Assembly (NCBI GenBank): GCA_016215555.1
Contig: JACRJC010000004.1
Coordinates: forward strand, 1 to 64,000
Direction of reading: 5' to 3'
Length of the DNA stretch: 64,000 bases
Origin: Rhodospirillales bacterium
GTDB lineage: Bacteria > Pseudomonadota > Alphaproteobacteria > Rhodospirillales > WMHbin7
A program made the translations under genes and the position numbers. The notes under the pieces are model-generated. The model saw nothing but the letters and a program-made list of their open reading frames with translations, made no database searches and was not told the origin of the DNA. Within the stretch, counting starts at the first letter, position 1. Every line of letters begins with the position of its first letter. Of the stretch, positions 39,298 through 41,319 are shown one piece after another.

Positions 39298-40296
39298 ATG
39301 CGCAATATCAGCCATATCGGAATCATCGGCGCCGGGGCCTGGGGCACGGCGCTGGCCGTCTCGGCCCGGCGCTCGGGCCTGAAGGTCACGCTATGGGCGC
39401 ATGAGGCCGATGTCGCCGACGCCATTCGAAGCAAGCACGAAAACCCCGTTTTCCTGCCCGGCATCAAGCTCGACCCCGGCATTGCCGCCACCACCGAGCC
39501 CGACGCTTTGCTGGAAACCGACGCCGTGCTGGCGGTGGCTCCGGCCCAATTCCTGCGCCCGACCCTGGCCCGTTTCGCGCCCGGCTGGCCGGAAGGCCTG
39601 CCGCTGGTGCTGTGCGCCAAGGGAATCGAGCAGGGCACATTGGATCTGATGACCGAAGTCGCCGCCGAAATTCTGCCCAAAGCGGCGCTGGCGGTTTTGT
39701 CCGGCCCCACCTTCGCCATCGAGGTGGCCCGCGGCTTGCCGACGGCGGTGACGCTGGCCTGCAAGGATGCCAGGCTGGGGGCCAAGCTGGTCAGCGCCTT
39801 GGGCACGCGCAGCCTGCGCCCCTATCTGGGCGACGATCCCATCGGGGCCGAGGTCGGGGGTGCTGTCAAGAATGTGCTGGCCATCGCCTGCGGCATCGTC
39901 TCGGGCAAGGGCTTCGGCGACAATGCCCGGGCGGCCCTGATTACGCGCGGCTTGGCCGAGATCGTGCGTCTAGCCGTCGCCAAGGGCGGAAAGCCGGAAA
40001 CGCTGATGGGCCTGTCGGGCCTGGGCGATTTGATCTTGACCGCCAACTCCACGCAGTCTCGCAATTTCTCGGTCGGCGTGCAGTTGGGCCAGGGCAAGAC
40101 CCTGGCCGAGGCTTTGGCCGGCAAATCCTCGGTCGCCGAGGGTGTGGCCAGCGCCGCCTCGACCGTGGCCCTGGGGCGCAAGATGGGCGTCGAAATGCCG
40201 ATTTCGCAAGCCGTCGATGCCGTGCTCAACCAAGGCGCCGATCTCGACGCCACCATCGAAGCCCTGCTGTCGCGGCCCTTCAAGAACGAGGTTTGA
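39298..40296 (+). CDS. gpsA: NAD(P)+-dependent glycerol-3-phosphate dehydrogenase
   Basis: This 332-residue enzyme reduces dihydroxyacetone phosphate to glycerol 3-phosphate for phospholipid synthesis. It has the nucleotide-binding motif [13 protein letters not shown], the [14 protein letters not shown] active-site region and the [20 protein letters not shown] segments typical of GpsA. It is followed four bases later by a YciI gene and then the EVE-Rieske gene, all plus strand. Confidence 0.96.
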
Positions 40297-40300
40297 AAAA

Positions 40301-40582
40301 ATGCTGTTTGCCATTCTGTGCAAGGACAAGCCGGGGGCGCTGCCCCTGCGCCTCGCCAACCGCGAGGCCCATCTCGCCTATATCCGGGAAGGCTGGGTCT
40401 CGAAAATCGTCACCGCCGGCCCCATTTTCGCCGATGACGGCCAAAGCATGGCCGGCAGCCTGCTGATCATGGATCTCGCCGACCAGGGCGAGGCCCAGCG
40501 CTATCTCGACGGCGACCCCTATGGCAAGGCCGGATTGTTCGAAAGCTGCGAGGTCTGGCCCTATAAGAAGGTTTTTCCTTGA
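40301..40582 (+). CDS. YciI family protein
   Basis: This 93-residue protein has the YCII ferredoxin-like fold pattern: LFAILCKDKPGALPLRL at the start, the HLAYI motif with the conserved His, a GP(I)F strand and FESCEVWPYKKV at the end. The exact activity of most YciI proteins is unknown. It overlaps the EVE gene start by four bases (40579-40582, TTGA), so that start would be TTG. Confidence 0.85.
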   Translation: MLFAILCKDKPGALPLRLANREAHLAYIREGWVSKIVTAGPIFADDGQSMAGSLLIMDLADQGEAQRYLDGDPYGKAGLFESCEVWPYKKVFP

Positions 40583-41319
40583 ACCATTGGCTGCTGAAAT
40601 CCGAACCCTCGGCCTTTAGCTGGGACGATCAGGTCAAGAAGGGCGTCGAGCCCTGGACGGGCGTTCGCAACCATCAGGCCGCCAAATATCTGCGTTCCAT
40701 GGGCAAGGGCGACCAGGCCTTCTTCTATCATTCGGTCGAGGAGAAGCGCATCGTCGGCATCGTCGAAGTGGCGCGCGAGTTCTATCTTGATCCCACGGCC
40801 AAGGAAGGCAATTGGGTGTGCGTCGATGTAAAGGCGGTTCGCCCCCTGTTCCGCCCCGTCACGCTGGCCCAGATCAAGGCCGAGCCGAAACTATCGGATA
40901 TTCCTCTCATCAAGCAATCGCGCCTGTCGGTGATGCCACTCGACGAAAGGGCCTGGAACATCCTGATGACGATGGGGGGGGCTGTGATTACGATTCCCCT
41001 TTCCGATCTCCCCGACCCCGGCGCCAGGGCCTTCGTCTTGGAAAATGCCGACGGGACAAAAACCGGCGGTTTCGTGCTGCGCATCGGCGACGTCATCCGG
41101 GCCTATGTCAATTCCTGCCCCCATACCGGAGCCCCCTTGAACTGGCAGGAGGACCGCTTCTTGGATTACACTCAGACCGACATCCTGTGCAGCATGCATG
41201 GCGCCCGTTTCACCCCGGAAACCGGCTTTTGCACCATCGGCCCCTGCAAAGGCAAGCAACTGACCCCGCTTGCCGTTGAAATCTCTCATGGAATGATTCA
41301 CGTCCGGCCCTTGTCTTGA
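40579..41319 (+). CDS. EVE domain fused in frame to a Rieske 2Fe-2S domain
   Basis: This 246-residue product has residues 1-135 as a full EVE domain (WLLKSEPSAFSWDD, VRNHQA, GDQAFFYHS), of the type that binds modified bases. Residues 136-246 are a Rieske ferredoxin with CPHTGAP and CSMHGARF as cluster ligands. The junction is a run of eight G (40974-40981). Removing one G would end EVE at MGGL-stop, and a GTG start for the Rieske gene (40984) would overlap that stop as GTGA, the pattern seen elsewhere in this genome. Both domains are real; whether they are one protein or two depends on that run. Confidence 0.75.
   Translation: MNHWLLKSEPSAFSWDDQVKKGVEPWTGVRNHQAAKYLRSMGKGDQAFFYHSVEEKRIVGIVEVAREFYLDPTAKEGNWVCVDVKAVRPLFRPVTLAQIKAEPKLSDIPLIKQSRLSVMPLDERAWNILMTMGGAVITIPLSDLPDPGARAFVLENADGTKTGGFVLRIGDVIRAYVNSCPHTGAPLNWQEDRFLDYTQTDILCSMHGARFTPETGFCTIGPCKGKQLTPLAVEISHGMIHVRPLS

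What the first reader, a model, noticed from the sequence alone, without database searches (positions are those of the whole stretch)
40972..40987. G8 tract joins an EVE gene to a Rieske gene that would otherwise overlap by GTGA
Eight consecutive G residues lie exactly at the domain border. With seven, the EVE protein ends normally at MGGL-stop, and GTG starts the Rieske gene with a GTGA overlap. With eight, one 246-residue fusion is made. This is either a sequencing error, a real fusion, or a slippage switch between two proteins and one.
Basis: seen in the sequence. Interest (0 to 1): 0.65.

Follow-up and report, generated by a model that had tools for sequence, protein, structure and literature searches.

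The report
Private one-base change fusing two genes
In this one genome draft, a run of eight Gs joins two neighbouring bacterial genes that every relative checked keeps apart, which looks like a one-letter slip (a private mutation or an assembly error) rather than a designed switch or an established fusion.

Summary
A G8 tract (40974-40981) lies between an intact EVE domain and an intact Rieske [2Fe-2S] domain and makes one 246-aa ORF. With seven G's the EVE gene would end ...MGGL-TGA and the Rieske gene would start at GTG with a GTGA overlap.

Relatives show that this two-gene layout is ancestral. Among 132 distinct loci with an EVE hit, 47 have exactly the 4-bp NTGA overlap; only the window is fused. 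No other unbroken EVE-Rieske match was listed in about 760 alphaproteobacterial genomes. The slippery tract is not conserved: longest G-runs are 2-6 in the 47 overlapping pairs. Any +1 insertion just upstream of a 4-bp overlap fuses the two genes automatically, so the "exact border" position needs no special explanation.

Best reading: a private +1 expansion of a chance G7 tract, either a real mutation in the sampled strain or an assembly error in this 81%-complete assembly. The assembly looks clean elsewhere: 17 other G>=8 runs keep their coding frame, and about 43 kb compared with genus relatives shows no other frameshift. Reads are needed to decide. A programmed or phase-variable switch is unlikely (about 5%).

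The parts
40974..40981 (+). G8 tract at the EVE/Rieske junction; inferred ancestral length G7
   Evidence: Read directly; ancestral length inferred from 47 relatives with a 4-bp overlap and no other fusion
40579..40983 (+). EVE-domain part (TTG start; last EVE codons ATG GGG GGG)
   Evidence: Pfam PF01878 residues 2-132, full profile; homologs in genus relatives 66-70% identical
40984..41319 (+). Rieske [2Fe-2S] part; GTG at 40984 is the inferred start codon of the separate gene; both Cys-His pairs of the motif (CPH, CSMH) present
   Evidence: Pfam PF00355; genus relatives begin a separate gene here, 75-79% identical
40984..40987 (+). GTGA: would-be 4-bp overlap of Rieske start and EVE stop, intact but out of the EVE frame as assembled
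   Evidence: Sequence; same overlap type in 47 distinct loci
40301..40582 (+). YciI-like gene directly upstream, overlapping the EVE start as TTGA (40579-40582)
   Evidence: Pfam PF03795, E 2.1e-18; sequence; 81-87% identical homologs in genus relatives end at the same place
39298..40296 (+). gpsA, NAD-dependent glycerol-3-phosphate dehydrogenase (start placed by homology)
   Evidence: Pfam PF01210 and PF07479; genus homolog of 332 aa
41418..43361 (+). Acetyl-CoA synthetase-like gene downstream (neighbour, start approximate)
   Evidence: Pfam PF16177, PF00501, PF13193

Best explanation
EVE and Rieske are two separate, co-directional and probably translationally coupled genes. Their ancestral layout is a 4-bp stop/start overlap (NTGA) at the end of a GpsA-YciI-EVE-Rieske run. 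In this lineage the conserved C-terminal Met-Gly-Gly of EVE happens to be written ATG GGG GGG, giving a G7 tract. In this assembly the tract has one more G. A 4-bp overlap puts the downstream gene in the -1 frame, so a single inserted base just upstream of the overlap necessarily skips the EVE stop and runs into the Rieske frame, producing one open 246-aa fusion. Shown: the sequence, the common two-gene layout in relatives, the absence of other fusions, and intact domains. Inferred: that the difference is a private event. Not resolved: whether the extra G exists in the cells (replication slippage in the sampled strain, about 0.48) or only in the assembly (about 0.42). If real, both domains are predicted to fold, and the internal GTG is still present and might start a free Rieske protein; only free EVE would be lost.
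For: 4-bp overlap in 47 of 132 distinct EVE loci, and 57 of 72 close pairs with Rieske in the frame that a +1 insertion joins to EVE. Same-genus G002 has an ATGA overlap. Window is the only unbroken match over both domains listed in about 760 genomes. Chance G6-G7 tracts at the same Met/Leu-Gly-Gly codons in unfused relatives, including G7 in same-family G004. Undecayed GTGA remnant. Other G>=8 runs in coding sequence keep frame (17 cases) and about 43 kb of homolog-covered sequence shows no other frameshift, so this is an isolated event.
Against: No reads, no second genome of the species: G7 was never observed directly in this species. Match lists are cut at the weak end. Only three other genomes of the genus were held, and two of them (G001, G003) have the genes about 0.5 kb apart rather than overlapping.
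Confidence: 0.9

Rival explanations
1. Slippage switch: the tract varies between G7 and G8 in the population (replication slippage) or in mRNA (polymerase slippage), giving two proteins in one state and a fusion in the other.
For: A mononucleotide G8 tract sits at a place where +/-1 toggles between fusion and overlap.
Against: The tract is not conserved: longest G-runs are 2-6 in the 47 overlapping relatives, mostly 3-4. The slippage study consulted concerns A/T tracts (PMC6260861). Genes are housekeeping-like, not the surface proteins typical of phase variation (PMC3711429). G8 words are no commoner than chance.
Confidence: 0.05
2. A genuine, selected EVE-Rieske fusion protein in this species that couples modified-nucleic-acid binding to a redox cluster.
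For: Both domains are complete in one open frame and modelled confidently when joined by about four residues. The two genes are neighbours across the order, which suggests a functional link.
Against: No second fusion was listed in about 760 genomes, and even the nine close pairs that share a frame keep a stop between the domains. The GTGA remnant is undecayed, so any fusion is very young.
Confidence: 0.05

Closest known systems
TsaD-GpsA-YciI-EVE operon of alphaproteobacteria (Bell et al. 2020, PMC7641849)
   Same: GpsA, YciI and EVE in the same order and direction directly upstream of the junction
   Different: The window adds a Rieske gene after EVE, which the paper's main text does not mention; no TsaD lies directly upstream of gpsA here, an MFS-type gene on the other strand does
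Translationally coupled genes with a 4-bp NTGA overlap
   Same: The inferred G7 form gives GTGA, the layout seen in 47 relatives
   Different: As assembled (G8) the stop is out of frame and the genes are fused
Singleton frame transitions caused by indels or sequencing errors (GeneTack survey, PMC3711429)
   Same: Private, single-base, at a homopolymer
   Different: Joins two adjacent genes instead of breaking one
Poly-G phase variation by slipped-strand mispairing
   Same: Homopolymeric G tract inside a coding region
   Different: Tract not conserved at the junction, no evidence of length variation, genes not of the surface-exposed type

Membership tests
EVE domain protein | Full-length match to PF01878 | tested here: met
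   E 1.3e-45, profile 1-145/145
Rieske [2Fe-2S] protein | Match to PF00355 with C-x-H and C-x-x-H ligand pairs | tested here: met
   E 2.4e-07; CPH and CSMH in the translation
Established EVE-Rieske gene fusion | Fusion present in related genomes | tested here: not met
   No other unbroken match listed in about 760 genomes; none in 132 distinct EVE loci
Programmed slippage or phase-variable gene | Slippery tract conserved at the frame junction | tested here: not met
   Longest G-run 2-6 in the 47 overlapping relatives
Programmed slippage or phase-variable gene | Mixed tract lengths in DNA or RNA of one population | not testable with these tools
   No reads and no second genome of the species are available
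4-bp overlap (translationally coupled) gene pair | Stop TGA overlapping the start codon of the next gene | tested here: inconclusive
   Met in 47 relatives; in the window GTGA is intact but out of frame by one base

The most novel reading that the evidence does not exclude
The G tract really varies between G7 and G8 in the population or in the mRNA, so the species makes free EVE and free Rieske in some cells or transcripts and an EVE-Rieske fusion in others.
Probability: 0.05. Interest if true: 0.55.

Novelty: new member of a known kind. Interest (0 to 1): 0.15.

Why it matters
Mainly as an annotation warning: an automatic pipeline would record an EVE-Rieske fusion protein and might take it as evidence that the two proteins act together, when the fusion is private to one draft genome. 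The sounder signal is the recurring 4-bp overlap of separate EVE and Rieske genes across the order, which fits the published idea that EVE in this operon is linked to electron transfer.

Tried and rejected
Conserved fusion: rejected after three genome searches. Loci that matched over both domains (L081, L082, L083, L161, L162) all keep a stop codon between the domains. Conserved slippery tract: rejected on tract lengths. A generally frame-broken, error-rich assembly: rejected from the other G>=8 runs and from homolog comparison. The apparent splits look like upstream or shadow-frame extensions of relatives' ORFs at gene borders, not frameshifts (the main one was read in the alignment). No paper naming both EVE domain and Rieske was found. 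Several Pfam calls failed because the YciI start was given one base off.

Full report
Observation. The tract is real in the assembled sequence: eight G's at 40974-40981, within ATGGGGGGGGCTGTGATT. The ORF 40579-41319 has 246 codons. It contains a complete EVE domain (PF01878, residues 2-132, whole profile) followed by a Rieske domain (PF00355, residues 166-226). With one G fewer, the EVE frame ends MGGL-TGA and the Rieske gene starts at the overlapping GTG (40984-40987 = GTGA). G8 words are not enriched: 4 in the window against 7.3 expected, 87 overlapping words genome-wide.

Neighbourhood. Upstream on the same strand are gpsA and a yciI-like gene, whose stop overlaps the EVE start as TTGA (40579-40582). 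Downstream is an acetyl-CoA synthetase-like gene. GpsA-YciI-EVE is part of the alphaproteobacterial TsaD-GpsA-YciI-EVE operon described by Bell et al. (PMC7641849). The word Rieske does not occur in that paper's main text. The window's genome is an 81%-complete assembly of 74 contigs.

Relatives. The fused protein was searched against 60 relatives, 317 genomes of the order and 385 of the class (overlapping sets, about 760 in all). Only the window gives an unbroken match over both domains. These match lists are cut at the weak end, so a very distant fusion could be missed. Reading the junction in every fetched locus after removing duplicates gave 132 EVE loci: 47 with the 4-bp overlap (stop TGA overlapping an ATG, GTG or occasionally TTG start), 1 with a 1-bp overlap, 24 with gaps up to 150 nt, 12 with larger gaps, 47 with no Rieske hit on the same strand in the locus, and one fusion, the window (first version). 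Start codons of relatives were taken mechanically. Of 72 close pairs, 57 have Rieske in the frame that a +1 insertion would join to EVE; nine share the EVE frame but keep a stop codon between the domains. In the genus, G002 has an ATGA overlap, and G001 and G003 have the two genes about 0.5 kb apart, with a hemerythrin-domain gene on the opposite strand between them in G001.

Why the run sits at the border. EVE proteins of this group end in a conserved Met-Gly-Gly or similar. The codons are usually GGC GGG, GGA GGA and the like, but some relatives write GGG GGN and reach G6 or G7 in frame, among them G004 of the same family with ATGGGGGGGCTTACCTAA. A chance G7 therefore arises easily at that spot. 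A 4-bp overlap puts the second gene in the -1 frame, so any single-base insertion just upstream of it fuses the two genes. The position and the fusion follow from the layout and need no dedicated mechanism.

Error or mutation. Two controls were made on the window's own genome. First, the frame on both sides of every G>=8 run that was fetched was scored with codon usage learned from the genome. Apart from the junction itself, 17 runs in coding sequence keep the same frame, and the flagged cases inspected look like natural gene ends; many others fall outside coding sequence or at gene edges and cannot be scored. Second, genus homologs cover about 20-22 kb of the window and 23 kb of two other 20-kb stretches, and no real frameshift was seen; the apparent splits lie at gene borders. 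The assembly is thus not error-rich, which weakens but does not exclude an error at this one tract. The intact GTGA remnant fits both a very recent mutation and an error.

If real. AlphaFold2 gives two confident domains for the joined chain (mean pLDDT 90.3, pTM 0.72), with helix 123-132 ending four residues before the first strand of the Rieske part at 137-140, so a fusion could be tolerated. This does not show that it exists. The internal GTG remains and might still start a free Rieske protein (inference). Free EVE would be lost.

Switch hypothesis. A programmed or phase-variable switch should keep its tract. It does not: longest G-runs in the 47 overlapping relatives are 2-6, mostly 3-4. 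The slippage study consulted examined A/T tracts only (PMC6260861), and a survey of frame transitions treats singletons as likely indel mutations or sequencing errors (PMC3711429). The probability is put at about 0.05.

Verdict. Ordinary: a private +1 G in a chance G7 tract, in DNA or only in the assembly, that joins two ancestrally separate, overlapping genes. The by-product worth keeping is that EVE and Rieske genes are close neighbours, often overlapping by 4 bp, across the order.

Noticed in passing
L031 754-1185 (G001:C15, minus strand): In G001 (same genus) a hemerythrin-domain gene (PF01814, E 1.6e-15) on the opposite strand lies between EVE and Rieske; G003 has a gap of similar size that was not examined.
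   Followed up: partly
47 distinct relative loci, e.g. L003, L007, L024, L164: EVE and Rieske genes overlap by exactly 4 bp in many Rhodospirillales-like genomes; this extension of the GpsA-YciI-EVE operon is not mentioned in the main text of the EVE survey.
   Followed up: partly
40579-40582: YciI stop and EVE start overlap as TTGA, so with G7 two successive 4-bp overlaps would join three genes.
   Followed up: no
L178 (G173:C166), end of the EVE gene: The EVE C-terminus is extended by an imperfect repeat (GGAGGCGTGGGTGATTTG-like units) just before the GTGA overlap.
   Followed up: no
L071 (G000:C19:29318-29328): A C11 run lies in apparently coding sequence and keeps the frame on both sides; it is a longer homopolymer than the one reported and a better place to look for tract-length variation.
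   Followed up: no
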